The notes under the pieces: model-generated
The model's database searches: none
Told to the model about the DNA's origin: nothing
What the model saw: the letters and a program-made list of their open reading frames with translations, nothing else
Program-made: the position numbers and the translations under genes
In this document: positions 3,166 to 25,445 of the stretch, in pieces
Position numbering within the stretch: the first letter of the stretch is position 1
Layout of the letters: each line of letters opens with the position of its first letter
From: Diplonema papillatum
Taxonomy: Eukaryota; Euglenozoa; Diplonemea; Diplonemida; Diplonemidae
Assembly (NCBI GenBank): GCA_030068145.1
Contig: JAPJBO010000941.1
Location: 1-64,000 of the forward strand
Direction: 5' to 3'
Length of the DNA stretch: 64,000 nt

Positions 3166-3650
3166 AAAAGGTACCGATAAGGTCGCAACCTCAAAAATAG
3201 GTACCGATAAGGTCGCAACCTCCAAAAGAGGTACCGATACCGTCGCACTCTCAAAAGGTACCGATAAGGTCGCACCTCGTCTTTTTTTCAGACTGCTTTT
3301 TTCTCGAAAAAAAATTTTCCGTTTTTTCTTCTTCAAAAAGGTACCGATAAGGTCGCAACCCCAAAAAGGTACCGATAAGGTCGCAACCTCCAAAAAAGGT
3401 ACCGATAAGGTCGCAACCTCCAAAAGAGGTACCGATAAGGTCGCAACCTCCAAAAGAGGTACCGATAACGTCGCAACCTCCAAAAGAGGTACCGATAAGG
3501 TCGCAACCCCAAAAAGGTACCGATAAGGTCGCACCTCAAAAAGGTACCGATAAGGTCGCAACCCCCAAAAGGTACCGATAAGGTCGCAACCCAGAAATGG
3601 GCAAAAGAGGTACCGATAAGGTCTCATGCGACGTTATCGGGACCGCCGCC
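3166..3650 (+). repeat. GGTACCGATAAGGTCGC subterminal array and terminus
   Basis: About a dozen copies of a roughly 28-30 bp unit, GGTACCGATAAGGTCGCAAC plus an A/C-rich spacer, run up to the terminus at 3650. On the reverse strand the terminus reads GGCGGCGGTCCCGATACC and contains a diverged first copy of the repeat. Merlin (10949-15442) and the 38-bp-repeat element (8322-16272) have the same layout, which is why I read it as an outer end and as a probable transposase-binding array. Confidence 0.7.
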
Positions 3651-6357: not shown

Positions 6358-6904
6358 GGCAGGTCTTCACTTTGGCTCATCTTCACTTTGTCTCCGGATG
6401 CAAAGTGAAGATTTTAAGTCGAAAAATCTTCACTTTACAGATCTTCACTTTAGATACGAGAAACCAAGATCTTCACTTTGTATCCTGACTGGATCTTCAC
6501 TTTACTGATCTTCACTTTGGATCATCTTCACTTTGTCTCCAAACAGGATCTTCACTTTAGAGATCTTCACTTTACATCCCGGATACAAAGTGAAGATCCT
6601 GTTTGGAGACAAAGTGAAGATTTTAAGTCGAAAAATCTTCACTTTGTCTCCCGGGTACAAAGTGAAGATCCTGTTTGGATACAAAGTGAAGATCCTGTTT
6701 GGAGACAAAGTGAAGATCCAGTTTGGATACAAAGTGAAGATTTTAAGTCGAAAAATCTTCACTTTGTATCCAAACTGGATCTTCACTTTGGAGATCTTCA
6801 CTTTGTACCCAGGATACAAAGTGAATCCTGTTTGGAGACAAAGTGAAGATCCAGTTTGGAGACAAAGTGAAGATTTTAAGTCGAAAAATCTTCACTTTGT
6901 CTCG
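6358..6904. mobile_element. AAAGTGAAGAT array, possible fourth array-armed element
   Basis: About 540 bp of ATCTTCACTTTGTCTCC-type repeats in both orientations. The palindromic module AAAGTGAAGATTTTAAGTCG plus its complement occurs four times. The left edge reads GGCAGGTCTTCACTTTGG: a GGCAG-type start that runs straight into the repeat, as in the three elements with confirmed ends. No matching right terminus is present, so this is at best a one-ended remnant. Confidence 0.45.
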
Positions 6905-7190: not shown

Positions 7191-7919
7191 CATGCAGGGT
7201 CAAAACCTTGTGTCTTTTTAAAACGCTCCCGCGGGCCAAAAAGGTACCGATAAGGTCGCACCTCAAAAAGGTACCGATAAGGTCGCAACCCCCAAAAGGT
7301 ACCGATAAGGTCGCAACCCAGAAATGGGCAAAAGAGGTACCGATAAGGTCTCATGAGACGGTATCGGGACCGCCGCCTGCTCACCCCGCCTGCCCCCCCC
7401 TTGCTGGGTGAGTCGACCAAGATCACGCAGCTAGGGGAGCTCACCGTGGTGGATCCCTCGCCGCTTCGGTTGGAGGCTGCTCCTTGCCTCCCCAACCCCG
7501 CCGGCTTCTTCACCACCAGCTTGACGCTGGGCTTCCTCTTCCCAGCCTTGGCCTCCGGCGCCCTGGAGGCCGGCTTGGCGCTCGGAGTTGCGGTACCTGT
7601 GCTGGTTTTGGTGGGGGGAGGAGCTGAAGAGTGAGAAGGGGGGGCTTGGCGTGCCTTCCGCAACGCCTCCCTCCTCAGCAGGGCTCGCGCTTCCATCGCA
7701 CCGGCCTCCTGCATCGTCCTCTGCCTCCTCTGCTCTGTGTCCTTCCTACATACCATGCAGGGTCAAAACCTTGTGTCTTTTTGAAAATGGCAAAAAAAAA
7801 AAATTCCAGAAAAAAATGGGTTTTTTGAATTTTAAAAGTTTGGAACAAACTCTGCAGTAATTTTTGAGGAAGTTGAGCAAATTTTTTTTTTTCCAAAAAA
7901 TTTTTTAGGGCTCCATCGG
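7191..7919. other. MITE split by a 681-bp inversion
   Basis: Bases 7191-7238 are one end of the MITE up to its GC-rich centre. Bases 7754-7919 are the other end, in the wrong orientation, also up to the centre. Reversing 7239-7919 joins them into one full MITE flanked by GTAT on both sides. It also makes the GGTACC array at 7239-7377 continuous with the one at 7920-8030. One breakpoint is therefore in the MITE centre and the other in the array. The pieces agree independently, so the inversion is well supported. Confidence 0.8.
7378..7756 (-). CDS. Fragment of a basic, low-complexity ORF
   Basis: About 120 residues rich in Ala, Lys, Arg, Ser and Pro (for example KRKPSVKLVVKKPAG), with no recognisable domain. 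It starts beside the MITE at 7754 and stops at the end of the large transposon (7377). By the GGTGAGCA target duplication, its sequence originally continued into 25145 onward, where Pro/Ser-rich reading also goes on. So this is part of the target of the large element. Whether it is a host gene or an older element is unknown. Confidence 0.35.
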
Positions 7920-8321
7920 CCCGGTTGCGACCTTATCGGTACCTCTTTTGGAGGTTGCGACGTTATCGGTACCTCTTTTGGAGGTTGCGACCTTATCGGT
8001 ACCTATTTTTGAGGTTGCGACCTTATCGGTACCTTTTTCGGAGAAAGTTCCGGAAAAATAATTGGGGGGGGAAAGGTGAAAAAATGTCGAGAAAAAACGT
8101 CGGAAAAAAAGAACTCTGAAAACGACAACTCTAAAAAAAGACCAGGTGCTTGTGATGATACTGCACAAAGCCGCTATCGACCTTAGAACTCTTTGCACGT
8201 GTCGTGTCATGCGGTCGTCTTGCTTTGCGCTTCACGGCCGTAATAGTAGCAGTTTGCACTTGAGCACTTGCAGCAATACTCTAGTCGTAGTCTGAAATGA
8301 AGTGATCCAAGGCAGACGACT
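7920..8321 (-). repeat. Array and single-copy part of the left arm
   Basis: Reverse complement of about 2872-3230 in copy 1, including four GGTACC units and the TTTTTTCCGACGTTTTTTC stretch. It is interrupted at 8321 by the 38-bp-repeat element and resumes at 16273. Confidence 0.8.
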
Positions 8322-8327
8322 GGCAGC

Positions 8328-10040
8328 TCTTCGGTTAGAGTCGCACAAGGCATTTCCATTACAAAAAACTTCGGTTAGAGTCGCAAGCCATTTTCATTGA
8401 GAAAAACTTCGGTTAGAGTCGCGTAGAGCATTTCCATTGAGAAAAACTTCGGTTAGAGTCGCAAGCCATTTTCATTGAGAAAAACTTCGGTTAGAGTCGC
8501 GTAGAGCATTTCCATTACAAAAAACTTCGGTTAGAGTCGCAAGCCATTTTCATTGAGAAAAACTTCGGTTAGAGTCGCGTAGAGCATTTCCATTACAAAA
8601 AACTTCGGTTAGAGTCGCAAGCCATTTTCATTGAGAAAAACTTCGGTTAGAGTCGCAAGCCATTTTCATTACAAAAAACTTCGGTTAGAGTCGCAAGCCA
8701 TTTTCATTGAGAAAAACTTCGGTTAGAGTTGCGTAGAGCATTTCCATTACAAAAAACTTCGGTTAGAGTCGCAAGCCATTTTCATTGCAAAAAACTTCGG
8801 TTAGAGTCGCAAGCCATTTTCATTGAGAAAAACTTCGGTTAGAGTCGCAAGCCATTTTCATTACAAAAAACTTCGGTTAGAGTCGCAAGACATTTTCATT
8901 ACAAAAAACTTCGGTTAGAGTCGCAAGCCATTTTCATTACAAAAAACTTCGGTTAGAGTCGCAAGCCATTTTCATTGAGAAAAACTTCGGTTAGAGTCGC
9001 GTAGAGCATTTTCATTACAAAAAACTTCGGTTAGAGTCGCAAGCCATTTTCATTGAGAAAAACTTCGGTTAGAGTCGCAAGCCATTTTCATTACAAAAAA
9101 CTTCGGTTAGAGTCGCAAGCCATTTTCATTACAAAAAACTTCGGTTAGAGTCGCAAGCCATTTTCATTACAAAAAACTTCGGTTAGAGTCGCAAGCCATT
9201 TTCATTACAAAAAACTTCGGTTAGAGTCGCAAGCCATTTTCATTGAGAAAAACTTCGGTTAGAGTCGCGTAGAGCATTTTCATCACCATGCAGGGTCAAA
9301 ACCTTGTGTCTTTTTAAAACGCTCCCGCGGGGCCGATGGAGCCCTTAAAAATTTGTTGGAAAAAAAAAATTTTGCTCAACTTCCTCAAAAATTACTGCAG
9401 AGTTTGTTCCAAAATTTTAAAATTCAAAAAACCCATTTTTTTTCCGGAATTTTTTTTTTTTGGCCATTTCCACAAAGACACAAGGTTTTGACCCTGCATG
9501 TTACAAAAAACTTCGGTTAGAGTCGCAAGCCATTTTCATTGAGAAAAACTTCGGTTAGAGTCGCGTAGAGCATTTTCATTACAAAAAACTTCGGTTAGAG
9601 TCGCAAGCCATTTTCATTGAGAAAAACTTCGGTTAGAGTCGCGTAGAGCATTTTCATTACAAAAAACTTCGGTTAGAGTCGCAAGCCATTTTCATTGAGA
9701 AAAACTTCGGTTAGAGTCGCATAGAGCATTTTCATTACAAAAAACTTCGGTTAGAGTCGCAAGCCATTTTCATTGAGAAAAACTTCGGTTAGAGTCGCGT
9801 AGAGCATTTTCATTACAAAAAACTTCGGTTAGAGTCGCAAGCCATTTTCATTGAGAAAAACTTCGGTTAGAGTCGCGTAGAGCATTTTCATTACAAAAAA
9901 CTTCGGTTAGAGTCGCAAGCCATTTTCATTACAAAAAACTTCGGTTAGAGTCGCAAGCCATTTTCATTACAAAAAACTTCGGTTAGAGTCGCAAGCCATT
10001 TTCATTACAAAAAACTTCGGTTAGGGTTGCGTAAGGGTCG
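8328..10040 (+). repeat. 38-bp tandem array, left arm
   Basis: About 40 units of CTTCGGTTAGAGTCGC plus a 22-bp variable half. Variants are CAAGCCATTTTCATT and GTAGAGCATTTCCATT, mixed in a higher-order alternation. The inverted counterpart is at 10478-10609 and 15556-16272. Confidence 0.9.
9287..9500. mobile_element. CATGCAGGG MITE (214 bp) in the left arm
   Basis: A complete copy. Terminal inverted repeats of about 29 bp begin CATGCAGGGTCAAAACCTTG. The flanks TCAC and TTAC are a 4-bp target duplication with one change from the array's TTAC. The interior is A/T-rich with a GC-rich segment (CTCCCGCGGGGCCGATGGAG) nearer one end. It has no coding capacity. Other copies in the window give NTAN duplications GTAA, CTAC, ATAC, ATAT, GTAT and GTAG. 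Confidence 0.88.
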
Positions 10041-10480
10041 CAAAAGAAAGAAAGAAAGAAAGGGCCTCAAGACAGAAACCTGGTTTAGCCTGTGTCTCTT
10101 CCGAAGGGAAGATCAAGACAGAAATCCAGTTTGACCTGTGTTGGCACCACACTCAACCCACCCACACCCCACCACTCCCACACCACACTCACATCAACCT
10201 CTCACCCACCCCACTCACACCCACACCACACTCACCCACCTCACTCACCAACCCACCCCCCAACTCACCCACCCCACACCCACTCCCACATCACCCACCT
10301 CACTCACCAACCCACCACCCCACACCCCACCACCCACACCACACTACTCACATCCACCTCACTCACAACCCACCTCACCCAATCACATCCACCTCACTAC
10401 TCACACCCACACCAACCACTCACATCCACCTCACTCACAACCCTCCCACACCACCACTCCACCTCACCCAATCACATCCA
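10041..10480 (+). other. Core of the 38-bp-repeat element: shared 80-bp module and C/A-rich tract
   Basis: A short AAAG run, then a module (about 10064-10140) containing CAAGACAGAAACCTGGTTTA and AAGACAGAAATCCAGTTTGA, then about 330 bp of CACCCACAC-type sequence. Module and tract recur in the same order inside Merlin (14383-15040, where the module is tripled). The shared core with different arms suggests modular exchange. Frames through the C/A tract are not genes. Confidence 0.75.
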
Positions 10481-10609
10481 CGAAGTTTTTTGTAATGAAA
10501 ATGGCTTGCGACTCTAACCGAAGTTTTTTGTAATGAAAATGGCTTGCGACTCTAACCGAAGTTTTTTGTAATGAAAATGTCTTGCGACTCTAACCGAAGT
10601 TTTTTGTAA

Positions 10610-10822
10610 CATGCAGGGTCAAAACCTTGTGTCTTTTTGAAAATGGCAAAAAAAAAATTTCCGGAAAAAAAATGGGTTTTTTTGATTTTTAAAAGTTTGG
10701 AACAAACTCTGCAGTAATTTTTGCGGAAGTTGAGCAAAATTTTTTTTTGCCAAATTTTTTTTTTGGGGTCCATCGGCCCCGCGGGAGCGTTTCAAAAAGA
10801 CACAAGGTTCTGACCCTGCATG
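10610..10822. mobile_element. CATGCAGGG MITE in the right arm
   Basis: A complete 213-bp copy flanked by GTAA (10606-10609 and 10823-10826). The site is the same point of the 38-bp repeat, read on the other strand, as the copy at 9287-9500. Confidence 0.88.
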
Positions 10823-10956
10823 GTAATGGAAATGCTCTACCATGCAGGGTCAAAACCTTGTGTCTTTTTAAAACGCTCCCGCGGGGCCGGTGGAGCCCTA
10901 AAAAAATTTTTGGAAAAAAAAAATTTTCCTCAACTTCCTCAAAAATTAGGCGGGTC

Positions 10957-11345
10957 TGGATCAACCCAATCTGGATCAATAAAAACTGGATCAAAAAAAA
11001 CTGGATCAAAAAAAACTGGATCAATAAAAACTGGATCAACTTTCCTGGTCAAAAAACTGGATCAAACTTTGATCCAGTTTTTTTCAGGTGGGTACACCTG
11101 GATCAAAAAAAACTGGATCAATAAAAACTGGATCAACTTTTTTGATCCAGTTTTTTTCAGGTGGGTACACCTGGATCAAAAAAAACTGGATCAAAAAAAA
11201 CTGGATCAAAAAAAACTGGATCAAAAAAAACTGGATCAAAAAAAACTGGATCAAAAAAAACTGGATCAAAAAAAACTGGATCAAAAAAAACTGGGTCAAA
11301 AAAAACTGGATCAAAAAAAACTGGGTCAAAAAAAACTGGATCAGC
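10957..11345 (+). repeat. 15-bp array, Merlin left arm
   Basis: About 25 units of CTGGATCAAAAAAAA with TCAATAAAAA and TGGGTCA variants, broken by two GGTGGGTACACCTGGATC segments. The inverted right arm is at 15050-15435. The number and spacing suggest clustered transposase-binding sites, which is inference. Translated KKTGS repeats here are not protein. Confidence 0.9.
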
Positions 11346-11827
11346 TTTTTTGGTCAGTTTCTGGACCAAAAAGTTGTTAGAAGGGTCACTCAACAGCTCA
11401 GCACAAGTGCTGCCCAGGCCTTGTGACCCTGGGTGGCGTTTTCCCCCTTTTCTGCCCAGGCCTTGCGACCTTGGGCAGTTTTTTTTTGTTTTGTTTTTTT
11501 TTTTTGGGCATGTTCTTTTTAATTGCTGGGTTTTTTCGGGGGTTTTCCCAGATAATCTACTGTACAACAGAAAAAGGCATTGGCCAAAGGACCAGCTCTA
11601 AGAGAAGAAAACATAGAAAAAGGGGTTTTAAAAAGTGTGTCACCTACCTGAGGAACGACTCAGGGAGAAAAAAATGCATTGGTCAAAGGGCTGCTAAGAG
11701 AAGAAAATGAAAAAGAGGGTTAAAGTGTGTCACCTAAGGACTCGGGGGAAAAAAATGCATTGGCCTAAGGGCCAGCTCTAAAAGAAGAAAATGTAGCAAA
11801 AAAGGGGTTGAGGAGGGATGCACAGTC
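11340..11827. other. Merlin, between left arm and transposase: nothing coding seen
   Basis: T-rich sequence followed by three diverged copies (about 11555-11800) of a roughly 80-bp unit containing GCATTGGCCAAAGGACCAGC and AGAAGAAAA. This would be the 3' flank of the transposase gene. No terminator or other gene is recognised. Confidence 0.5.
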
Positions 11828-14211
11828 TTACTCTTGCTTCTGTGGTGTTCTCTTCAAGGCAAGTCGCCGACGCTTAGAAGCATCAGCACCTTCATCCATG
11901 TCAAGCACAGTTGGGGTCATTGGGAAGGTTGATTCATCCTCTGAGTGCTCCTCTGACCGCTTCTTCGAAGACGAGAAAGTTAAAACAAGGCTGTTCCGAG
12001 TCTTTGAGGATGGAGGAGTGCAAGGGTTTGTAGGTGCCCTTGGGGGTTTTTTTGTCCTGAGGTCCGAGTTTGAAAATGTTTGGCGTGAAGGAGGAACTTT
12101 GGCTTGGGAAGGAATGCCCAGATGGCTCATGATGGCATTCAAGCCGCTTTGAAGCTGTGCCACAGTACCTTCAACATTGGCCATACGTGAGTCCAGCCGT
12201 GGACCAGTAGACGGAGGGGACACTGTCAATGAAGAAGAAGATGAAGCCTTGTGTGCAAACGGGGCAAAAGGGTTCTTTTCTGATGCTTCACCCAGCTTTA
12301 CTTTGAAAGCCTCAGAGGCTCGGGGTCTCTTTACAGGCCTTGCAACAGGTGTTGCCATTGCAGCTGGTGCAGCCGGGGCAGCTGGTGGAACTAGCACTGG
12401 GTCAGCTGCAGGAGCTGGGTCAGCTGCAGGAACTGGTGCAACTGGGTCAGCTTCAGGAACTGGTGCAACTGGGTCAGCCGGCAGTTCTGGTTCTTTTGAA
12501 CCTGTCCCACGAGACACAGCCAACATGTAGCGAACATGGGTAAAAGCATCTCCTATGCAGACAAGTCCATCATGAAAGATGTCCCCAGGACCGTTCTGTT
12601 TCCTCCAAAGGCTCACAAGAACTTCTTCAACCTTTCGAACATTCTGAGGCCCAGTTGTTCGCAGTGCTTGCTTCAGCCGGCCCCACTGACCATCTGCCAA
12701 TTGGGTTCCTGCAACCCACCCGCGAGCGCTGTATGCTTTCCTGACTTCTTCCACAGAGCCGTCAGCATTGCCACAAATGAGATCTTTCAAGACATTGGTT
12801 TCACTGGACCAGGTTTCATCCTTTGGAACACCAAACTGCTTGGACTTTGCAGTCGACTTCTCAATCAATGAAGTTACCCGTCTTGTGAACTCATGCTTCC
12901 CGTGGTTCACCCACGCATAGCGCACTTTTTCACGGCCGTCGGGCTCATTCTTCCACCAGAACGAGCTGTTGCTTTCGTTGGGGCTGAAATATGCTCGGTA
13001 TGTGGCTGCCCCGTCTGTGGAGAGAAAGAGGGGATTGGTTGGTGTACCAATTGCCAGGATTCCCTCACTCAATACTGCATTCAGCTCTTCTCCAGAGATG
13101 GGGGGTGGCGATGGGATTACTGCATGGGAGGTGTTGTTGGTCCAAAGACCCAGTCCAGACGGGAGTTCGACAAGTTTCCCAGGTTGAACAAGCTTTTGCC
13201 ACCTTTCCGGGAGTACGCGAAGAATGCAACATCCTGAGTCCCGCTCTATAAACCCAACGAAGCGCATGTATGCATACTCCGCCTCTGCTCCTGTCCCGCG
13301 TTTGCGCACTCCAATGCTGAATTCATCTACCTCTACACACGTTCCTGGCCCACCAATCGGAAGTGAGGATGCTTCTGCCATCTTCAAAGACTCACATGAC
13401 AACTCCCGCATCAGGGAACTGAGCCTGCTGTGTGTCTTGGAGCTCAAGTACTGGTAAGAGTCTTGTTGCTTGCAAGTCATTCCAAGGCAGTGGCCATGAA
13501 TTTTGTTCAGAAACTGACAGACAGAGATCTTTGGGCCTGCATTTTTGTGTGTCTGCTCCATGTCGTCAAGGTCCCCTCCCAGAACAGCATCAATGCATTC
13601 ACCAACCACAACTCGACCACTGACTGTCTCGTTGCAGATCTTGCCGTTGACCGTCTGATCACACTGCCAGAGTGGCCATCCACCAGGTTGATGTGTCCAC
13701 TCAGAGAGCTCCTTGTTGCACTCTGGGCAGTGCACAGTAGCAGGAAGGACACCATACTCTTGAAGCATTTTGACCATCGCAACTTCACCTCCAGCCACAA
13801 TTTCCAAGAACTGCAAGTTAGGTCTTTGCCTGCGCTTCGCCTTGCTTGACCCTGAATACCATGCAGGGTCAAAACCTTGTGTCTTTTTAAAACGCTCCCG
13901 CGGGGCCGATGGAGCCCTAAAATTTTTTTTGGAAAAAAAAAAATTTGCTCAACTTCCTCAAAAATTACTGCAGAGTTTGTTCCAAACTTTTAAAATTCAA
14001 AAAACCCAATTTTTTCTGGATTTTTTTTTTTTGCCATTTTCAAAAAGACACAAGGTTTTGACCCTGCATGATACAGCATCCTTGCTGCTGCTGCCTTGCC
14101 TTTTTTTCCTTCAGTAATCCAGTAACGATCCTTTGACCGGTGCTGGTGGGCAGATACTGCCAAGCCTTTGCTTTCGTTCTTGTCAGTCTTCATTTTTAGT
14201 GTTTCTCTCAA
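11828..14211 (-). CDS. Merlin transposase, split by a MITE
   Basis: The main frame runs from about 13857 down to 11828. Counted from the codon at 13816, an N-terminal zinc ribbon has Cys30, Cys33, Cys52 and Cys61. The ISXO2/IS1595 DDE-like core shows Asp163 (VEVDEFSIG), Asp268 (LSTDGAATYRAY), the VNHGKHEFTR motif and TQLADGQWGRLKQAL, where Asp375 stands where relatives often have Glu or Asn. The C-terminus has an Ala/Pro repeat (PVAPVPAADP) and a Ser-rich tail. On the far side of the MITE at 13860-14070, a 47-residue N-terminus starting MRETLKMKTDKN (14211) reads in the same frame once the MITE and one ATAC copy are removed. The gene was therefore open until that insertion. The enzyme would cut and paste this element and perhaps the other GGCRG-ended ones. 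Confidence 0.85.
13860..14070. mobile_element. CATGCAGGG MITE inside the Merlin transposase
   Basis: A complete 211-bp copy with ATAC at 13856-13859 and 14071-14074. It interrupts codons near residue 47 of the transposase. On the coding strand the insert is bracketed by GTATCA and a TTCAG, so splicing as an intron is conceivable, though the obvious GT-AG pair would not keep the frame. Confidence 0.88.
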
Positions 14212-14382
14212 GTTGTAACCTGTTGTGATGGGTGTGGCAAATCAAATCAATTCAATCAAGTGTTGTCCACTTCAACTGTCCTGTTGTGCTGGTGGGACTC
14301 AAAGCAGAAATGAAAGGGAGCAGGAGACAGAAGATTGAAGAATGGTTGAAGGAAGAGTAAGAAAATAACAGAAAGGTGTGCC

Positions 14383-15040
14383 TCAAGACAGAAACCTGGT
14401 TTAGCCTGTGTCTCTTCCCCAAGGGAAGATCAAGACAGAAATCCAGTTTGACCTGTGTTGGCAAGTGTGGCCTCAAGACAGAAACCTGGTTTAGCCTGTG
14501 TCTCTTCCCAAGGGAAGATCAAGACAGAAATCCAGTTTGACCTGTGTTGGCAAGTGCCTCAAGACAGAAACCTGGTTTAGCCTGTGTCTCTTCCAAAAGG
14601 GAAGATCAAGACAGAAATCCAGTTTGACCTGTATTGGCACCACACTCAACCCCCCCACCCACCTCACTTGCACCCACCTCACTCACACCATCCCACCCAC
14701 TCACACCCACACCACCCATTCACACCCACCCCACTCTTACCCACACCAGCCACTCACACCCACCTCACTCACACCCACCCACACCACCCACCTCACTCAC
14801 ACCCACACCACCCCACACCCACACCCACACCACCCATTCACACCCACCTCACTCACCACTTTCACCCACAGCCACTCACACCCACACCACCCATTCACAC
14901 CCACACCCACCTCACTCACCCTTTCACATCACCTCACACCCCACACACCCACCTCACCCACCCCACACCCACACACCCACCTCACTCAACCCACCCACAT
15001 CACTCACTCCACCTCACAATACACCCACACACACACACCA
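14383..15040 (+). repeat. Tripled 80-bp module and C/A-rich tract in Merlin
   Basis: Three copies of an approximately 86-bp unit (14383, 14470 and 14560), each with AAACCTGGTTTAGCC and GAAATCCAGTTTGACCTG. They are followed by about 400 bp of CACCCACCTCACTCACACC-like sequence. The same order, with a single unit, is the core of the 38-bp-repeat element. Confidence 0.8.
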
Positions 15041-15555
15041 CAAACTGGATCAAAAAACTGATCCAGTTTTTTTTTTGACCATAATGATCCAGTTTTTTTT
15101 GATCCAGTTTTTTTGATGACATTGATCCAGTTTTTTTTGATCCATTTTTTTTTGATCCAGTTTTTTTGGCCATATTGATCCAGTTTTTTTTGATCCAGTT
15201 TTTATTGATCCAGTTTTTTTTGATCCAGTTTTTATTGATCCAGTTTTTTTTGATCCAGGTATACCCACCAGGAAAAAACTGGATCAAAGTTTGATCCAGG
15301 TATACCCACCTGAAAAAAACTGGATCAACTTTCCTGGTCAAAAAACTGGATCAATAAAAACTGGATCAAAAAGTTGATCCAGTTTTTTTGGCCATATTGA
15401 TCCAGTTTTTATTGATCCAGATTGGGTTGATCCAGACCCGCCAAAAATTACTGCAGAGTTTGTTCCAAACTTTTAAAATTCAAAAAACCCAATTTTTTTC
15501 CGGAGTTTTTTTTTTTTGCCATTTTCAAAAAGACACAAGGTTCTGACCCTGCATG

Positions 15556-16272
15556 CTACTCGACTCTAACCGAAATTTTTCTCAATGAAAATGGCTTGCG
15601 ACTCTAACCGAAGTTTTTTGTAATGGAAATGCTCTACGCGACTCTAACCGAAGTTTTTCTCAATGAAAATAGCTTGCGACTCTAACCGAAGTTTTTTGTA
15701 ATGAAAATGGCTTGCGACTCTAACCGAAGTTTTTTGTAATGAAAATGGCTTGCGACTCTAACCGAAGTTTTTTGTAATGAAAATGGCTTGCGACTCTAAC
15801 CGAAGTTTTTTGTAATGAAAATGGCTTGCGACTCTAACCGAAGTTTTTTGTAATGAAAATGGCTTGCGACTCTAACCGAAGTTTTTCTCAATGGAAATGG
15901 CTTGCGACTCTAACCGAAGTTTTTCTCAATGAAAATGGCTTGCGACTCTAACCGAAGTTTTTTGTAATGAAAATGGCTTGCGACTCTAACCGAAGTTTTT
16001 TGTAATGAAAATGGCTTGCGACTCTAACCGAAGTTTTTTGTAATGAAAATGGCTTGCGACTCTAACCGAAGTTTTTTGTAATGGAAATGGCTTGCGACTC
16101 TAACCGAAGTTTTTCTCAATGAAAATGGCTTGCGACTCTAACCGAAGTTTTTTGTAATGGAAATGCTCTACGCGACTCTAACCGAAGTTTTTCTCAATGA
16201 AAATGGCTTGCGACTCTAACCGAAGTTTTTTGTAATGGAAATGCCTTGTGCGACTCTAACCGAAGAGCTGCC
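15556..16272 (-). repeat. 38-bp tandem array, right arm
   Basis: Inverted counterpart of 8328-10040, ending at the terminus 16272. The outer 90 bp match the left end exactly. Confidence 0.9.
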
Positions 16273-16636
16273 AGACGACTTTAAAGTGTTTCAAACAGAT
16301 CACAAACACGCTGAGCTCAAGTATACACTGCAATCAAGTGCTCCTAAACTGCTCGTGTTGCGAACGAATCAGCGGGATAGTGCACGAAAAGATGCTACAG
16401 CATACCACTGTTTAGCCAACAAGAACTAAGGCCGGCACGTTTCCGAGGCCGCTTCAATGTCCTGTATGGTTTTTGCATATCATGCAGGGTCAAAACCTTG
16501 TGTCTTTTTGGAAATGGCAAAAAAAAAATTTCCAGAAAAAAATTGGGTTTTTTGAATTTTAAAAGTTTGGAACAAACTCTGCAGTAATTTTTGCAGAAGT
16601 TGAGCAGAAACTTTTTTCCAACTTTTTTTTTTGGGG

Positions 16637-17750
16637 ATCAACCAGGTTTCTTGTCACTCAAACCAGACTGGACCGAGGAAAATCTGACGAATCAAAGATT
16701 CCCCGATACCAGAGATTGTATCGTGTCAAGCCTAGATTGATGCATGATCATTCTATTCATTCTTCAGCTTTCAAAGGGGCAGTCCTCGATCGTATCTCTA
16801 CGACCGATAGCTTTCCTCGATTGCCTTTTTTGTATTTCACCATCGTGTCTTCCCGATTACCTTGACCATTTGATCGAGCGCATACGAGTATGCTAACTCG
16901 GATCTGGAACGAGTCCATGGGAGAGGAACGGTCTTGACTTTTGCATTTTCATTGGCACATGACCGATTCATTTTGCATTCCCTCCATGTCTTTCGAGCAC
17001 GTGGTATGTCATTCATACTCATTCTAATCGGCATCCCTCTTCTTGAATCGCGAACGATTCTTTCCGTGGAATGTTAACACCGCCATTTGAGATTATCGAG
17101 GCGAGGTCATGCCAGATTAGTTAGCTATGTCACTAGAGCGGAGTGCTGCTCCGATTCAGAATGTGATTGACTCACTCTAGTGATTAGCGTTCTTGCCTTA
17201 TGAATACCAGTCTCTTTCATTTGCCAGTCTTTGATTTTCATTTCATGCGTGGTTGACCATCATATTACCAACAGGAGAGGTAGTGATCCTTCCGTCCTCC
17301 TGGAGCTCAAGAGCTTCCAGGAGGGGAGGACCCCCTTTCCTATATTGGGCATGACCCCTTTTCCCGAACTGGGGGGGTCGGCGACGCGCACGCGTCCCTC
17401 CCCCCCCCCCTCCCCCCCTCCCTACAGTTGCCTGTAGGAGAGAGAGGAGAGAGGAGAGAGGGAGAAGAGAGAGAGAGGAGAGAGAGCAGCGCACGAGAGT
17501 CACCTGGCAACAACGCGCCCACCTCATACCCTTGCTCCTGAGCACAACACCTCCATCTCCAATCTTCTCCGCGCCGGGAAGCTCCCGCACCGGCCCAGAG
17601 CTCAACCTTTTTACAAAGGGAGCCGAGGGCCAGAACAGGAACTTTGACGCGAAAAAAAATGGCGAGGGGTTTTTCCAAAAAATCAATCCATGCCTTTGAA
17701 GTGTGAACCTCACGAGACTAGACGATTTTTGGAAATCGTCAGTCGCTCTC
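16637..17750 (-). other. Ribosomal spacer or 5' external spacer up to the first bases of 18S
   Basis: On the minus strand this ends AACCTGGTTGATCC (16637-16650), the conserved start of 18S rRNA, cut after 14 bases. Upstream of that is spacer-like sequence, including a GA/CT-rich run (17420-17490). A stretch at 16837-17058 recurs on the plus strand at 55985-56207. I find no LSU rRNA sequence here, although it should lie between 5.8S and this spacer in an ordinary unit. Confidence 0.6.
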
Positions 17751-17984
17751 ATTGAAGATCCATTGATCGAACACCATCCAATTTCATCAAACCTTGCGAT
17801 TCAACTCCAGAAGATATGCGATGCTCGTTCTCGGACCCAGGATTTCAAACAGAGCATCGATCGGGTTGAATGATCTTTGCACCGCCACATTCTCGATTCA
17901 AACCGATTCAACTCGATCAACAATAATCAGCAAGCCAATCACCATCGAATCAAGAGTCGAACGCAGTCTGAGAGATTAGATTTT

Positions 17985-18145
17985 CAAGCGACACTCAACT
18001 GCTGATGGGCATGGGCGAACCCAGCCCGCTAATGCGTTCGACGACCTGATGAGTCTCATGCTTCTGCAATTCCCATTGACTATCGCGTCTGGCCGCGGTC
18101 TTCATCGTTCCCAGAGCCAAGACATCCACCGATAAGTGCAATTGA
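17985..18145 (-). rRNA. 5.8S rRNA
   Basis: The minus strand carries the conserved core GGTGGATGTCTTGGCTC, GAACGATGAAGACCGC, GAATTGCAGAAGCATGAG and TCGAACGCATTAGCGGGCTG, in the usual order and over the usual length of about 160 nt. Ends are approximate. It is embedded in a rearranged rDNA piece inside a MITE and is probably not transcribed as part of a working unit. Confidence 0.85.
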
Positions 18146-18520
18146 TGTCACCCTCGATCAACCGCAGTTGAGCCGAGGGGAACAGTTGTTTTGCCTTTCC
18201 GATTGCTCGGGATTTTCGATTTCCTTCATGACCATGTTTGAATCCTCGGTTTCCAATCTGTTTGAAAGTCGTTTCCTCATTCCATTCAGAATTGAAATCT
18301 TTGGTAACATGCAAGGTCAAAACCTTGTGTCTTTTTGAAAATGGCAAAAAAAAAAATTCTGGAAAAAAATTGGGTTTTTTGAATTTTAAAAGTTTGGAAC
18401 AAACTCTGCAGTAATTTTTGAGGAAGGTGAGCAAATTTTTTTTTTTCCAAAAATTTTTTTAGGGCTCCATCGGCCCCGCGGGAGCGTTTTAAAAAGACAC
18501 AAGGTTTTGACCCTGCATGG
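18146..18520 (-). other. ITS1 with a MITE at the 18S edge
   Basis: The spacer between the 5.8S start and the 18S end (CATTAC/CAAAG on the minus strand). Bases 18308-18519 are a MITE, leaving about 160 bp of ITS1. Confidence 0.75.
18308..18519. mobile_element. MITE at the 18S/ITS1 junction
   Basis: A complete 212-bp copy (left end CATGCAAGG, one change) flanked by GTAA (18304-18307 and 18520-18523). The site falls within a few bases of the mature 18S 3' end. Confidence 0.88.
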
Positions 18521-18969
18521 TAATGATCCTGCTGCAGGTTCACCTACAGCAACCTTGTTACGACTTTTGCTTCCTCTAGCTGAGAAACATTGCTTGGATT
18601 CGGGCGCTGAACTTGTTGCCAAGAACGAGCTTCCCTCTCCCAAGCTCTATCCCACAGCCAATCGGTAGCAACGACGGGCGGTGTGTACAAATGGCAGGGA
18701 CGTAATCAGTGCAAGCTGATGACTTGCGCCTACTAGGCATTCCTCATTCAAGGAGAATAATTGCAATCATCGATCCTCATCACGACGCAAGTTCAAAAGA
18801 TTTCCCATCCTCTTCAAGATAGGTAGCCGGAAGGCTCTCAAACTCGTTTAATGCGTCAGTGTAGTGCGCGTGCAGCCTAGGACATTTAGGAGCATCACAG
18901 ACCTGCTATTGGCTCGCTCTTCCGCGCGCTATAAGTCGCGCGCAGTCCCCTTAAGAAGTAGTGCGCGTC
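18521..18969 (-). rRNA. 18S rRNA, 3' fragment (about 450 nt)
   Basis: The reverse strand reads through universal SSU segments: AGCAGGTCTGTGATGC, GCACGCGCACTACACTGA, GTACACACCGCCCGTCG, AAGTCGTAACAAGGTTGC and GTGAACCTGCAGCAGGATCA at the 3' end. The 5' three-quarters of the gene are missing; the fragment begins at the MITE. This shows the host is a eukaryote and is the best sequence here for identifying it. It is likely a relic rather than a working gene. Confidence 0.93.
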
Positions 18970-19092
18970 TATCGGCCCCGCGGGAGCGTTTTCAAAAGAC
19001 ACAAGGTTCTGACCCTGCATGATATTGTATCAGCGAAAAGTGCACTTCGAAAAGTACCTGTACCTTCCACAGATCGGCAATGACTCCCATAC

Positions 19093-19304
19093 CATGCAGG
19101 GTCAAAACCTTGTGTCTTTTTGAAAATGGCAAGAAAAAAAATTCCGGAAAAAAATTGGGGTTTTTGAATTTTAAAAGTTTGGAACAAACTCTGCAGTAAT
19201 TTTTGAGGAAGTTGAGCAAAATTTTTTTTTTCCAAAAAAAATTTTAGGGCTCCATCGGCCCCGCGGGAGCGTTTTAAAAAGACACAAGGTTTTGACCCTG
19301 CATG
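19093..19304. mobile_element. CATGCAGGG MITE, first of a tandem pair
   Basis: A complete copy with ATAC on both sides (19089-19092 and 19305-19308). The right ATAC is also the left flank of the next copy. Confidence 0.88.
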
Positions 19305-19308
19305 ATAC

Positions 19309-19519
19309 CATGCAGGGTCAAAACCTTGTGTCTTTTTAAAACGCTCCCGCGGGGCCGATGGACCCCAAAAAAAAAAGTTGGAAAAAAAAAATTCGCTCAA
19401 GTTCAGCAAAAATTACTGCAGAGTTTGTTCCAAACTTTTAAAATTCAAAAAACCCAATTTTTTTCTGGAACTTTTTTTTTTGCCATCTCCAAAAAGACAC
19501 AAGGTTTTGACCCTGCATG
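19309..19519. mobile_element. CATGCAGGG MITE, second of a tandem pair, opposite orientation
   Basis: A complete 211-bp copy with ATAC at 19305-19308 and 19520-19523. It used the target duplication of its neighbour as its own target. Confidence 0.88.
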
Positions 19520-19629
19520 ATACCGCTTCTGGGGGTGGCTTCTCTGCTTCCAACTTTCCTGTGTGGTGATGTAGGGGCCCGCTTGTAGCCCACGAATCAG
19601 GGTTGTGCTGCCCCGACACTCAAACGACC

Positions 19630-20240
19630 TTCAAGGGCTTCAAGGCCAGACGACTGTTTAGTGTTGCAAACGAATCGCAAACACGCTGAAGTTGGGACTC
19701 CCACACACTGAAATCAAGTGCTCCTAGGCAGACGAACTGTTAGTGTTGTGAACGAATCGCAAACACGCTGAGATTGGGACCCCACACACTGAAATCGACT
19801 GAGAACAACCTGAGCGATCTCTCTTAATAAAATATTTAAGCGCCGAAGGCGCAACCACCCAATCCAACTTTGTACACACGAAACAGAGATCTTATGAATC
19901 AACGAAAAGTGAGCAAAAAGTAGCCTGTAAAACCGGAACAAGTCGGAAACCCCGTCGGGGGAAAGTACGACCTTCAAGTGCTCCAAGGCCAGACGACTGT
20001 ATAGTTGCAAACGAATCGCAAACACGCTGAAGTTGGGACTCCCACACACTGAAATCAAGTGCTCCTAGGCAGACGAACTGTTAGTGTTGCGAACGAATCG
20101 CAAACTCACTGAAATTGAGACCCCACACACTGAAATCGACTGGGAACAACCTGAGCGATCTCTCTTAATAAAAGATTCAAGCGCCGAAGGCGCAACCACC
20201 GAAACCGACTTTGTACACACGAAACAGAGATCTTATGAAT
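19630..20240 (-). repeat. Satellite block, inverted arm
   Basis: Two to three inverted units of the 350-365 bp satellite. The matching arm in copy 1 (437-2507) has about six. Confidence 0.85.
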
Positions 20241-20868
20241 CAACGAAAAGCGAGCGAAAAAGAGCGTGAAAAACCGGAAGAAGTCAAAATAGTACCTGTA
20301 TCTGCCACAAGACTCCTTCGCCAGCGCTGTTTGCGATGTGGTGTTTTCTCTGTTAACATTCCTGTGAGGTGGAGTTGGGGTTGGTTTACCATCCTCCAAG
20401 CGAATGGATTGGAACAGCAATTGTAGCCTACAAATCCGGTTTGTCCTGCTTCATCGTAGCTGGCTGCGCAACAAGAACAAAAGTGTGGAAAGTAAGTAAC
20501 TATGTATTTCTTTGTCTCCCCATCCACCTATATGTGTGGCTGTCATCAGAGAGAGAATCATTACGTTGTTGGTGCCGTGCGCCTACAACGACGCGGCCTT
20601 GTCGTAAACGATGATGATTGCGTCGATGATGGCGCAGCCGGGGGCGTTCTGGCTGGTGGGTGCGACCGCCTGCGAGTGTTAACAGGTTGTGTCGCTGGTT
20701 CTTTTTGATCGCTTGGCCCACGGCGGCGGCTAGCACCTTGGCAGAGACTCTCAACTCCCGCTGAACAATACGTCTTGCGGATACTCGGGCACCGCATCAG
20801 TGCTTGCCCAACATCCATTCGGTCTCCAGCAGCAAAGCACTTGTGAGATCGCTGTTCAGTGTGGAGGT
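20241..20868. other. Single-copy centre of the large transposon
   Basis: Bases 20240-20676 match the reverse complement of 1-437. The rest has no counterpart in the window. Short frames occur on both strands, but none has a recognisable domain. I see no gene. Confidence 0.5.
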
Positions 20869-23800
20869 CGGATTGGGTGGTTGCGCCTTCGGCGCTTGAA
20901 TCTTTTATCAAGAGAGATCGCTCAGGTTCTTCTCAGTCGATTTCAGTGTGTGGGGTCCCGATCTCAGCGTGTTTGCGATTCGTTCGCAACACTAACAGTT
21001 CGTCTGCCTAGGAGCACTTGATTTCAGTGTGTGGGGGTCCCAACTTCAGCGTGTTTGCGATTCGTTTGCAACACTATACAGTCGTCTGGCCTTGGAGCAC
21101 TTGAAGGTCGTATTTTCCCGTCTTTTTCCTAGTTTTTCGCCGACTGTCTTTCCGTCTTTTACCGGGTTTTACACGCTCTTTTTCGCTCGCTTTTCGTTGA
21201 TTCATAAGATCTCTGTTTCGTGTGTACATAGTTGGATTGGGTGGTTGCGCCTTCGGCGCTTGAATCTTTTATCAAGAGAGATCGCTCAGGTTGTTCTCAG
21301 TCGATTTCAGTGTGTGGGGTCCCGATCTCAGCGTGTTTGCGATTCGTTCGCAACACTAACAGTTCGTCTGCCTAGGAGCACTTGATTTCAGTGTGTGGGG
21401 GTCCCAACTTCAGCGTGTTTGCGATTCGTTTGCAACACTATGCAGTCGTCTGGCCTTGGAGCACTTGAAGGTCGTATTTTCCCGTCTTTTTTCCAAGTTT
21501 TTCGCCGACTGTCTTTCCGACTTTTCCCGGGTTTTCACGCTCTTTTTCGCTCGCTTTTCGTTGATTCATAAGATCTCTGTTTCGTGTGTACAAAGTCAGA
21601 TTGGGTGCTTGCGCCTTCGGCGCTTGAATCTTTTATTAAGAGAGATCGCTCAGGTTCTTCTCAGTCGATTTCAGTGTGTGGGGTCCCGATCTCAGCGTGT
21701 TTGCGATTCGTTCGCGACACTAACAGTTCGTCTGCCTAGGAGCACTTGATTTCAGTGTGTGGGAGTCCCAACTTCAGCGTGTTTGCGATTCGTTTGCAAC
21801 ACTATACAGTCGTCTGGCCTTGGAGCACTTGAAGGTCGTATTTTCCCGTCTTTTTCCTAGTTTTTCGCCGACTGTCTTTCCGACTTTTCCCGGGTTTTAC
21901 ACGCTCTTTTTCGCTCGCTTTTCGTTGATTCATAAGATCTCTGTTTCGTGTGTACATAGTTGGATTGGGTGGTTGCGCCTTCGGCGCTTGAATCTTTTAT
22001 CAAGAGAGATCGCTCAGGTTGTTCTCAGTCGATTTCAGTGTGTGGGGTCCCGATCTCAGCGTGTTTGCGATTCGTTTGCAACACTAACAGTTCGTCTGCC
22101 TAGGAGCACTTGATTTCAGTGTGTGGGGGTCCCAACTTCAGCGTGTTTGCGATTCGTTTGCAACACTATGCAGTCGTCTGATCTTGGAGCACTTGAAGGT
22201 CGTATTTTCCCGTCTTTTTTCCAAGTTTTTCGCCGACTGTCTTTCCGACTTTTCCCGGGTTTTTCACGCTCTTTTTCGCTCGCTTTTCGTTGATTCATAA
22301 GATCTCTGTTTCGTGTGTACAAAGTCAGATTGGGTGCTTGCGCCTTCGGCGCTTGAATCTTTTATTAAGAGAGATCGCTCAGGTTGTTCTCAGTCGATTT
22401 CAGTGTGTGGGGTCCCGATCTCAGCGTGTTTGCGATTCGTTTGCAACACTATACAGTCGTCTGGCCTTGGAGCACTTGAAGGTCGTATTTTCCCGTCTTT
22501 TTTCCTAGTTTTTCGCCGACTGTCTTTCCGACTTTTCCCGGGTTTTACACGCTCTTTTTCGCTCGCTTTTCGTTGATTCATAAGATCTCTGTTTCGTGTG
22601 TACAAAGTCGGATTGGGTGGTTGCGCCTTCGGCGCTTGAATCTTTTATTAAGAGAGATCGCTCAGGTTGTTCTCAGTCGATTTCAGTGTGTGGGGTCCCG
22701 ATCTCAGCGTGTTTGCGATTCGTTTGCAACACTAACAGTTCGTCTGCCTAGGAGCACTTGATTTCAGTGTGTGGGAGACCCAACTTCAGCGTGTTTGCGA
22801 TTCGTTTGCAACACTATACAGTCATCTGGCCTTGGAGCACTTGAAGATCGTATTTTCCCGTCTTTTTTCCAAGTTTTTCGCCGACTGTCTTTCCGACTTT
22901 TCCCGGGGTTCTACACGCTCTTTTTCGCTCGCTTTTCGTTGATTCATAAGATCTCTGTTTCGTGTGTACAAAGTCGGATTGGGTGGTTGCGCCTTCGGCG
23001 CTTGAATCTTTTATTAAGAGAGATCGCTCAGGTTGTTCTCAGTCGATTTCAGTGTGTGGGGTCCCGATCTCAGCGTGTTTGCGATTCGTTTGCAACACTA
23101 ACAGTTCGTCTGCCTAGGAGCACTTGATTTCAGTGTGTGGGAGACCCAACTTCAGCGTGTTTGCGATTCGTTTGCAACACTATACAGTCGTCTGGTCTTG
23201 GAGCACTTGAAGGTCGTATTTTCCCGTCTTTTTTCCAAGTTTTTCGCCGACTGTCTTTCCGACTTTTCCCGGGTTTTACACGCTCTTTTTCGCTCGCTTT
23301 TCGTTGATTCATAAGATCTCTGTTTCGTGTGTACAAAGTCGGATTGGGTGGTTGCGCCTTCGCCGCTTGAATCTTTTATTAAGAGAGATCGCTCAGGTTG
23401 TTCTCAGTCGATTTCAGTGTGTGGGGTCCCGATCTCAGCGTGTTTGCGATTCGTTTGCAACACTATACAGTCGTCTGGTCTTGGAACACTTGAAGGTCGT
23501 ATTTTCCCGTCTTTTTCCAAGTTTTTCGCCGACTGTCTTTCCGACTTTTCCCGGGTTTTACACGCTCTTTTTCGCTCGCTTTTCGTTGATTCATAAGATC
23601 TCTGTTTCATGTGTACCAAGTCGTTTTCGGTGGTTGCGCCTTCGGCGCTTGAATCTTTTATTGAGAGAGATCGCTCAGGTTGTTCTCAGTCGATTTCAAG
23701 CGTTATTTCAGTGTGTGGGGTCCCAACTTCAGCGTGTTCGTGATTCGTTTGCAACACTAAACAGTCGTCTGGCCTTGGAGCACTTGAAGGTCTTTTTCCC

Positions 23801-24426
23801 GTCTTTTTTCCAAGTTTTTCGCTGACTGTCTTTCCGACTTTTCCCGGGTTTTACACGCTCGTTTTCGCTCGCTTTTCGTTGATTCATAAGATCTCTGTTT
23901 CGTGTGTACATAGTTGGATTGGGTGGTTGCGCCTTCGGCGCTTGAATCTTTTAGCGTTTATTGTGGTTTAGAGGTTCGGTGTTTTAGGGTCTCCGGTTGA
24001 CCATTGAGGCTGTGAGGCGGGTGGTATGAGGGTAGTAGGTATGCTTATACACTTTAACTACGGCTAGCCATGTTTGTAAGTGTTGCGCTTTTATTAAGAG
24101 AGATCGCTCAGGTTGTTCTCAGTCGATTTCAGTGTGTAGGGTCCCGATCTCAGCGTGTTTGCGATTCGTTCACAACACTAACAGTTCGTCTGCCTAGGAG
24201 CACTTGATTTCAGTGTGGGAGTCCCAACTTCAGCGCGTTTGCGATTCGTTTGCAACACTACAATCGTCTGGCCTTGGAGCACTTGAAGGTCTTTTTCCCG
24301 TCTTTTTTCCAAGTTTTTCGCCGACTGTTTTTTCCGACTTCCTCCAGGGTTTGTAAACACTCTTTTTTGCTCGCTTTTTCGCTGAATCGTAAGATCTCTG
24401 TTTCGTGTGTACATAGTTGGATTGGG
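20869..24426 (+). repeat. 364-bp satellite, long direct block
   Basis: About ten units, several spaced exactly 364 bp (for example 21029, 21393 and 21757). Each includes the GCGCCTTCGGCGC hairpin and a TTTTCGCCGACTGTCTTTCC stretch absent from the copy-1 units. The high similarity between units indicates recent amplification or homogenisation. Confidence 0.88.
23953..24087. mobile_element. 135-bp unidentified insertion in a satellite unit
   Basis: About 135 bp, starting GCGTTTATTGTGG and ending GTAAGTGTTGCG, interrupts the AATCTTTTATTAAG box. CTTTTA on each side looks like a 6-bp duplication. It has no inverted ends, no coding capacity and matches nothing else in the window. It could be an organelle-derived fragment, a SINE-like piece or a short transposon. 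Confidence 0.5.
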
Positions 24427-24795
24427 TGGTTTCGGATTTTTTTTTTGGCCCAAAAAAATTTCGGAAAATTTTCGGATTTTTTTTTTGGCCCAAAAATTTT
24501 TCGGAAAATTTTTGGATTTTTTTTTTGGCCCAAAAATTTTTCGGAAAATTTTTCGGATTTTTTTTTTGGCCCAAAAATTTTTCGGAAATTTTCGGATTTT
24601 TTTTTTTGGCCCAAAAATTTTTCGGAAATTTTTCGGAATTTTTTTTTTGGCCCAAAAATTTTTCGGAAATTTTTCGGATTTTTTTTTTTTGGCCCAAAAA
24701 ATTTTCGGAATTTTTTCGGATTTTTTTTTTTTGAAATTTTTTTTTGGAAAATTTTCGGATTTTTTTTTTGGCCTGAAAATATTTTCGGGAAAATT
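24426..24795 (+). repeat. TTCGGATTTTTTTTTGGCCC array
   Basis: About eight units of roughly 55-60 bp, TTTTCGGAAA..TTCGGA plus a T run and GGCCCAAAAA. It forms part of the right arm of the large transposon and is absent from the left arm. The long Phe- and Lys-rich frames here are artefacts of the repeat. Confidence 0.8.
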
Positions 24796-24805
24796 TGGTC
24801 ACAAT

Positions 24806-25144
24806 CCCAAAAAAGGTAGAGATAAGGGCGCAACCCCCAAAAAAGGTCGAGATAAGGGCGCAACCCCCAAAAAAGGTCGAGATAAGGGCGCAACCCTCAA
24901 AAAAGGTCGAGATAAGGGAACAACCCCCAAAAAAGGTCGAGATAAGGGAACAAGCCAAAAACGGGCCAAAAAGGTAGAGATAAGGGCGCAGCTCAAAAAG
25001 GTAGAGATAAGGGCGCATCTCAAAAAGGTCGAGATAAGGGCGCAACCCAAAAACGGGCCAAAAAGGTCGAGATAAGGGTGCAACCCAGAAATGGGCAAAA
25101 AAGGTTGTGATAAGGTCTCATGAGACGGTATCGGGACCGCCGCC
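24806..25144 (+). repeat. GGTCGAGATAAGGGCGCAAC array and right terminus
   Basis: About ten units of 26-31 bp ending at the terminus 25144. The unit is a relative of the left-arm unit (GGTCGAGATAAGGGCGC versus GGTACCGATAAGGTCGC), so the two ends of one element carry diverged arrays. Confidence 0.8.
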
Positions 25145-25445
25145 GGTGAGCAGCCCCGTCTCCCCAGCGATCCTGGTGCCCCAAGCCGCGACGGGGCGAG
25201 GTTGCTCCAACCGAAGGGGTCCCGAGTGGCGACCGTTTTCCCTGCCGAGAGGCCTTTTCCACCCCCGAGGGACCTCGGAAAGGCCCCCGAAACCCGAAAA
25301 ACAAGAAACATACACACAGTGGGGATTTTTCCCCAATTTTCGACCACATTTGACCAGTGAGAGACTTTTTTTCTCTCACAATGGAAGCTTTTTGAACTGG
25401 CAGGTGCCAGGTTTGCCACACCACCAGATAGTGCTGGTTTGGTAG
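25145..25445. other. Right flank of the large transposon
   Basis: Starts with the target-duplication copy GGTGAGCA. Pro/Ser/Arg-rich open sequence runs on the plus strand, with no recognisable domain. It shares CCCCCGAAACCCGA and ACCAGTGAGAGAC-type motifs with the hairpin region 26200-26560. Confidence 0.4.

What the first reader, a model, noticed from the sequence alone, without database searches (positions are those of the whole stretch)
8322..25144. Three transposon families built on one plan: GGCRG terminus running into a private tandem array, 8-bp target duplication
Seen: Merlin (GGCGGGTCTGGATC, 15-bp array), the 38-bp-repeat element (GGCAGCTCTTCGG, 38-bp array) and the satellite-armed element (GGCGGCGGTCCCGATACC, 28-30 bp array). 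All show perfect 8-bp duplications: AAAAATTA, AGACGACT and GGTGAGCA. In each case the first repeat unit overlaps the terminus. Only one encodes a transposase. Inference: this is a Merlin-type lineage in which each family evolved long arms of its own binding sites, some growing into satellites. I know of no description of Merlin elements with such arms.
Basis: partly seen in the sequence, partly recalled or inferred. Interest (0 to 1): 0.9.

Follow-up and report, generated by a model that had tools for sequence, protein, structure and literature searches.

The report
Transposon families with private repeat arms
A marine protist genome carries several related jumping-gene families that share a short tip and the same way of inserting, but each has arms made of its own short repeat, and at least four of them contain their own version of one transposase related to those of bacterial IS1595 elements.

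Summary
AAAAATTA and AGACGACT flank the first two elements exactly. GGTGAGCA flanks the third only after undoing one inversion (7236-7922), which also rebuilds a split MITE with its own duplication. Perfect 8-bp duplications flank 8/10 (15-bp), 9/19 (38-bp) and 5/10 (satellite-armed) tested genome pairs, window included. Two more families, F8 (3/5) and F10 (3/3), show them too; F7 rests on one copy, F4-F6 on ends alone. In six families the tip is a ~7-bp cap (GGCRGST or GGCGGGA) and the private repeated word starts at position 7-9. The transposase has no Pfam hit and, in three capped searches, relatives only in Diplonema, but its profile matches bacterial IS1595 transposases (hhalign 95.7%, E 1e-8; shuffled controls 0.05 or worse). 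Relatives lie between duplication-flanked ends of four families. The satellite-armed family has no shown transposase, and growth of arms into satellites is not shown. Likely mechanism: cut-and-paste, with arms as transposase-binding arrays, as in Galileo. Internal tandem repeats in Merlin are published; private arms behind a shared cap I did not find in my searches.

The parts
10949..15442 (-).
   Evidence: 8 of 10 genome pairs tested have a perfect 8-bp duplication
10949..11343 (+). left arm, unit CTGGATCAAAAAAAA
15044..15442 (-). right arm, same unit, mostly inverted
11828..13816 (-). transposase reading frame, 662 aa: N-terminal zinc-ribbon-like part, VDEF, STDG, VNHG and ADGxWxxLK motifs
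   Evidence: IS1595 homology; 70 genome matches; only Diplonema protein relatives
14376..15020 (+). leader upstream of the transposase: 89-bp repeats plus CA-rich tract, shared with the 38-bp family
13860..14070 (.). MITE (duplication ATAC) just upstream of the transposase frame as listed, probably inside the gene's 5' part
10841..15555 (.). MITE (duplication CTAC) into which the 15-bp element inserted
8322..16272 (.). 38-bp-array element, duplication AGACGACT at 8314-8321 and 16273-16280
   Evidence: 9 of 19 pairs tested have a perfect 8-bp duplication
8322..10033 (+). left 38-bp arm (39 units), interrupted by a MITE copy
15556..16272 (-). right 38-bp arm (19 units)
10060..10470 (+). leader module plus CA-rich tract of the 38-bp element, 79% identical over a 429-column alignment to the leader of the 15-bp element
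7236..7922 (.). inverted segment holding the left tip and first arm units of the satellite-armed element
7360..7377 (-). left tip (GGCGGCGGTCCCGATACC) of the satellite-armed element, inverted, followed by TGCTCACC
7923..8043 (+). rest of the left arm of the satellite-armed element (ACCTTATCGGTACC units)
19631..24286 (.). 81-/364-bp satellite inside the satellite-armed element, in two blocks (19631-20137 and 20867-24286)
24806..25126 (-). right arm, about 30-bp units (CCTTATCTCGACC)
25127..25144 (-). right tip of the satellite-armed element, followed by GGTGAGCA 25145-25152
3628..3650 (-). end of a second satellite-armed copy, variant tip GGCGGCGGTCCCGATAACGTCGC (112 in the genome)
6358..6904 (.). 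further family on the same plan (F6): GGCAGGTCTTCACTTTGG, array of TCTTCACTTTG; no right tip seen

Best explanation
These are cut-and-paste DNA transposons of one IS1595/Merlin-related lineage in a diplonemid genome (probably Diplonema papillatum or a close relative). Each family has a near-constant short cap (GGCRGST or GGCGGGA) where strand cleavage would occur, followed at once by a private tandem array that I take to be an array of binding sites for the N-terminal part of that family's own transposase. Insertion duplicates 8 bp. Internally deleted copies that keep cap and arms (one of 512 bp was read) move in trans. Diversification of the unit together with the transposase lets several families coexist without cross-mobilising. 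SHOWN: tips, arms, 8-bp duplications, a transposase relative inside four families, remote homology to IS1595. INFERRED: binding to the arms, cleavage at the cap, trans-mobilisation, orthogonality, membership of the satellite-armed family.
For: Perfect 8-bp duplications: 15-bp 8/10, 38-bp 9/19; satellite-armed 4/7 A-B pairs and the window copy; F10 3/3; F8 2/4 plus C208, which was found because of its duplication. Transposase matches between same-family ends with a perfect duplication: 15-bp at C941 and C9, 38-bp at C134, F8 at C211 and C310, F10 at C113 and C2197. F8 and F10 ends go with different transposase identity groups (14:1 against 2:5, Fisher p 0.004; cut-off chosen afterwards, copies not independent). 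hhalign to 73 IS1595-like proteins: 95.7%, E 9.6e-9, score 68.8; reversed alignment 14.6; best of 20 column shuffles 19.2. The leader module lies inside 11 of 13 38-bp pairs checked and within 1.5 kb upstream of 7 of 27 transposase matches, in those 7 always in the same orientation. A 512-bp copy that is almost all arm has a perfect duplication (L035). Binding sites in such repeats were shown for Galileo (PMC3688188, abstract and discussion read).
Against: No Pfam or NCBIfam hit to a transposase domain. The structure model failed (pLDDT 38). The third catalytic residue looks like D, not E, and the C-terminal alignment alone is weak (probability 6.5%, E 0.0056). Of the pairs tested, 2 of 10, 10 of 19 and 5 of 10 lack a perfect duplication. 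No transposase was shown for the satellite-armed family. Some ends have only 1-4 contiguous units, so long arms are not always kept. C1090 and C187 have F10 ends near a transposase of the other group, and C1173 an F8 end 3 kb from one of a third group. 20 of 27 transposase matches lack the leader module. Nothing here tests binding.
Confidence: 0.7

Rival explanations
1. The elements form one IS1595/Merlin-related lineage, but the arms are passive: slippage and unequal exchange turned the subterminal region into minisatellites that serve no transposition function (proto-satellites carried by transposons).
For: Arm length varies from 1 to 39 units within the 38-bp family; arrays are also nested and rearranged. 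A paper on Merlin proposes that it spreads tandem repeats as proto-satellites (PMC8101967, passages read). Some ends with few units exist.
Against: In six families the repeated word starts at a fixed place, position 7-9 behind the cap; arms lie at both ends in inverted orientation and are kept in a 512-bp copy with a perfect duplication. Drift alone does not predict that.
Confidence: 0.22
2. The satellite-armed family (and its relative F5) belongs to a different superfamily that also makes 8-bp duplications, and resembles the others by convergence.
For: Its tip (GGCGGCGGTCCCGATACC) does not fit the GGCRGST cap, its ends come in two types, no exact word near its tip recurs in the first 200 bp, and no listed transposase match lies in its 4 duplication-verified copies outside the window.
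Against: Same GGC start, 8-bp duplication, and arms close behind the tip in 24 of 30 loci. One search scored only 67 of 2759 candidates, so absence is weak evidence.
Confidence: 0.35
3. The pattern is an artefact of assembly or of reading repeats by eye.
For: The region is highly repetitive and contains one inversion that could be biological or an assembly error.
Against: Copies on different contigs have the same tips with different, perfect 8-bp duplications; reversed-pattern controls are zero.
Confidence: 0.02

Closest known systems
Merlin superfamily (eukaryotic, IS1016-related)
   Same: Termini begin GG, 8-bp (also 9-bp) duplications, transposase remotely related; several families per genome; internal tandem repeats reported in Symbiodinium and in several Repbase families (PMC8101967, passages read).
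   Different: No DDE_Tnp_IS1595 domain hit; N-terminal zinc-ribbon-like part; 104 residues between the first two acidic positions (50-70 between blocks is usual, about 110 in some); apparent D in place of E at the third position; long arms starting at the tip.
Bacterial and archaeal IS1595 family
   Same: Zinc ribbon, then the E-x-D-E, G-x-x-E-R, T-D and N-H blocks in the same order; 8-bp duplications (PMC8101967).
   Different: Simple insertion sequences; array arms are not a feature I know of (recalled); proteins of about 250-320 aa against open frames of roughly 500-700 aa here.
Foldback-like elements and Galileo (P superfamily), Tetris of Drosophila
   Same: Long inverted ends with tandem repeats; in Galileo about 40 bp of terminus is conserved between families while the long ends are family-specific and hold transposase binding sites (PMC3688188, abstract and discussion read); Tetris repeats became a satellite (PMC4079207, abstract and section list read).
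   Different: Galileo's transposase belongs to the P superfamily and binds through a THAP domain; here the conserved cap is only about 7 bp and the transposase is IS1595-like.
Sea-urchin TU elements (recalled; one search found no paper)
   Same: As recalled: inverted ends of about 15-bp tandem repeats and 8-bp duplications.
   Different: Not compared; no sequence or paper was read.

Membership tests
Merlin superfamily | terminal inverted repeats starting 5'-GG | tested here: met
Merlin superfamily | 8- or 9-bp target duplication | tested here: met
Merlin superfamily | DDE_Tnp_IS1595 domain (PF12762) detectable, the criterion used in PMC8101967 | tested here: not met
   no hit in single proteins or fragments or in the whole genome (Haloferax volcanii positive among 14 control genomes). 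The family is therefore not filed as Merlin, only as related to it
Merlin superfamily | DDE catalytic triad | tested here: inconclusive
   D164 and D268 align with IS1595 acidic blocks; the third block aligns as ADG against IEG, so D for E, in a weak local alignment
Merlin superfamily | no N-terminal IS1595 zinc ribbon (as usually described) | tested here: inconclusive
   hhalign aligns a C-x2-C ribbon with that of IS1595; Pfam gives only Zn_ribbon_TFIIB at E 0.11-0.12
IS1595/Merlin clade (remote homology) | profile homology of the transposase | tested here: met
   95.7%, E 9.6e-9 against shuffled best E 0.054; 2 of the 73 template proteins were checked and are PF12762
Foldback-type architecture | long inverted ends composed of tandem repeats of variable number | tested here: met
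P superfamily / Galileo | P-type transposase with THAP domain | tested here: inconclusive
   no THAP or P-type model among the Pfam rows, but Pfam also misses the IS1595 domain here; the positive homology is to IS1595

The most novel reading that the evidence does not exclude
A separate, previously unnamed eukaryotic branch of IS1595-derived transposons in which end recognition is split into a near-universal 7-bp cleavage cap and an exchangeable private array. Arm unit and transposase DNA-binding region co-evolve, giving nine or so orthogonal families in one nucleus and seeding minisatellites.
Probability: 0.48. Interest if true: 0.75.

Novelty: new variant of a known kind. Interest (0 to 1): 0.62.

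Why it matters
It gives a natural series of sister transposons that share a cap and a transposase but differ in their repeat arms. That makes the question of why Foldback-like elements carry long repeat arms directly testable, and offers a way in which closely related transposons could stay separate within one genome. It also extends the IS1595/Merlin relationship to diplonemids, where my searches found no published Merlin, and shows that the Pfam model used to call Merlin misses such transposases.

Tried and rejected
Pfam, NCBIfam and PDB sequence searches for the transposase: nothing credible. AlphaFold model from three sequences: pLDDT 38, so no fold search was made. Three protein searches found only two Diplonema proteins; only the 8000 candidates sharing most words were scored.

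A generic screen of 5-mers followed by arrays was useless, since array phases dominate: GGCGG ranked 79th and GGCAG 156th. A 9-mer cap screen excluding the fetched families gave 6 armed of 29 sites against a mean of 0.375 for 200 shuffled patterns, but 3 of 200 shuffles reached 6 and 8 of 200 the same fraction: weak support.

The de novo duplication scan gave 25 hits at 8 bp, of which 6 are taken as real (window 2, one copy seen in L035 and L036, L052, L090) and 19 as array phases, MITE pieces or palindromes; at 6, 7 and 9 bp I saw only such artefacts, and the rows at 5 and 10 bp were not printed. L025:965-1706 (AAAATTTT) was rejected: its flanks are inverted, not direct, repeats, and the sequence recurs inside family F10. 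F4's first tip pattern had 1 copy; another F4 tip was seen in L026. L067 carries a transposase fragment inside a 38-bp element but is rearranged; I rely on C134 instead. Recalled accession numbers of Haloferax plasmids were not in the collections.

Choices and rows dropped: the 15-bp pair on C9 is the outer one; the inner left end there (424700) does not match the right flank. Satellite-armed pairs counted: A-B 4 of 7; A-A window yes, C253 and C151 no. 3 of the 70 rows (second pieces on C130, C261, C407) were dropped, which used four families' end lists. 8 of 100 listed module rows (C215 array) and the unlisted rest of 202 were not used. 31 of 116 motif hits, then 12 of the remaining 85 by length, were dropped. 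Only the first 100 of 114, 134 and 112 places were listed. Pairs left untested: 38-bp C289, C616 (contig edges), C1219, C1318, C1455, C1904; about a dozen A-B pairs of the satellite-armed family; A-A pairs C1024 and C1141.
Full report
Source. The window lies in a 271-Mb eukaryotic assembly. The only protein relatives of its transposase found are two Diplonema papillatum hypothetical proteins, and one contig encodes a 64-residue stretch 98% identical to one of them. D. papillatum has a ~280-Mb genome assembly, 52% repeats (PMC10161547, abstract and passages read). The organism is therefore probably D. papillatum or a close relative. 'Merlin' has 0 occurrences in the main text of that paper.

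Observation. The 15-bp and 38-bp elements are as described. The satellite-armed element is right in substance but hidden: both of its ends in the window point the same way. Undoing an inversion of 7236-7922 puts GGTGAGCA in front of the left tip and at the same time rebuilds a 214-bp MITE with GTAT on both sides. The elements are nested one in another, each step of the ladder with a perfect duplication.

Genome test. Exact tips: 69, 114 and 134; reversed controls 0. Convergent pairs with a perfect 8-bp duplication: 15-bp 8 of 10, 38-bp 9 of 19, window included in both (the 38-bp pair on C439 matches at 7 of 8 bases). The satellite-armed family has two end types, A and B (112 copies). A-B pairs give 4 of 7. 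Of three A-A pairs the window's matches after the inversion is undone, C253 and C151 do not. So failures are common; rearranged or chimeric copies are the likely cause, but I did not show this for each.

More families. A scan of the held sequence for GG-starting inverted ends with 8-bp duplications found two further families: F7 (GGCGGGTGTCAGATTTTGC, duplication AAGCCATT) and F8 (GGCAGGTCTCTACCCCGGCG, TGTCCCCA). Reading loci gave F4 (GGCGGGTCTACACCTTGTCC), F5 (GGCGCCGTTCCCGATGG), F6 (GGCAGGTCTTCACTTTGG, window 6358) and F10 (GGCGGGAGTCTAAAGTC). F8 has 92 and F10 67 exact ends. F10 duplications are 3 of 3; F8 2 of 4, plus the C208 copy by which it was found. The word that recurs in the array starts at position 7-9 in the 15-bp, 38-bp, F4, F6, F7 and F10 families; in F8, F5 and the satellite-armed family no exact word near the tip recurs within 200 bp.

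Transposase. The 662-residue frame has no curated-domain hit. To test Merlin kinship I collected IS1595 proteins from bacterial genomes with a motif recalled from memory; two were checked and are PF12762 with the IS1595 zinc ribbon, the other 71 were not scanned. The diplonemid profile (11 sequences, 9 used) aligned with the 73 over 214 columns: 95.7%, E 9.6e-9, score 68.8. The reversed profile scored 14.6 and the best of 20 column-shuffled profiles 19.2. The alignment covers the zinc ribbon and the E-x-D-E, G-x-x-E-R, T-D and N-H blocks in order. The last block, tested on its own, aligns as TQ-x-ADG-x-W-x-x-LK with HTNTIEG-x-W (probability only 6.5%, E 0.0056). The family is thus remotely related to IS1595 and so to Merlin, yet PF12762 finds nothing in this genome.

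Each family has its own transposase. A genome search with the window protein gave 70 matches, 65 of them without internal stops (67 of 2759 first-look candidates scored). Of 67 rows used, 29 have an end of one of four families facing outward within 6 kb, and 11 have same-family ends on both sides. Those with verified duplications: 15-bp (C941, C9), 38-bp (C134, TGACTTGT, open frame 572 aa), F8 (C211, C310), F10 (C113, C2197). Two F10-flanked matches (C1090, C187) belong to the other identity group and may be nested. The 15-bp and 38-bp families also share a leader (89-bp repeats plus CA-rich tract, 79% identical), found in 11 of 13 38-bp pairs checked and upstream of 7 of 27 transposase matches.

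What was not shown. No duplication-verified satellite-armed copy was shown to carry a transposase. By coordinates, two other A-B pairs enclose a match: C211:24317-36177, whose flanks do not match, and C867:73686-91102, not tested. The 364-bp satellite has a different unit from the arm, so 'arms becoming satellites' is not supported here, though arm length varies. Binding of transposase to arms is inference, with a precedent in Galileo (PMC3688188, abstract and discussion read).

Prior art. PMC8101967 (passages read) reports internal tandem repeats in Merlin families and suggests that they could spread satellites, so repeats in Merlin are not new. Searches pairing Merlin with tandem repeats, foldback, subterminal binding sites and diplonemids, and for diplonemid terminal inverted repeats and satellite-forming transposons, listed no description of Merlin-like families with private arms behind a common cap. 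These searches cover open-licence papers only, and I went by the listings except for the papers named.

Odds.

Noticed in passing
window 7165-27354, 12 left-type and 12 right-type ends: A ~214-bp MITE (CATGCAGGGTCAAAACCTTGTG...) with 4-bp duplications of the form NTAN (GTAT, GTAA, CTAC, ATAC, GTAG) inserted repeatedly into the other elements; one copy (9287-9500) has unequal flanks TCAC/TTAC.
   Followed up: partly
window 7236-7922: Inversion with breakpoints inside one MITE copy; biological or an assembly error.
   Followed up: partly
window 17989-18860: Antisense 5.8S and partial 18S rRNA sequence inside the satellite-armed element.
   Followed up: no
window 32322-38003: Non-LTR retroelement frame of 1893 aa with an OTU-like protease domain, endonuclease, reverse transcriptase and an RNase H-like domain.
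   Followed up: no
L081, L091, L093; C145:207104-208186: Satellite-armed elements abut or interrupt transposase-like frames of the other families.
   Followed up: partly
window 27551-28028: Array of about 21/43-bp units of palindromic CGTCACGCGTGACG sequence.
   Followed up: no
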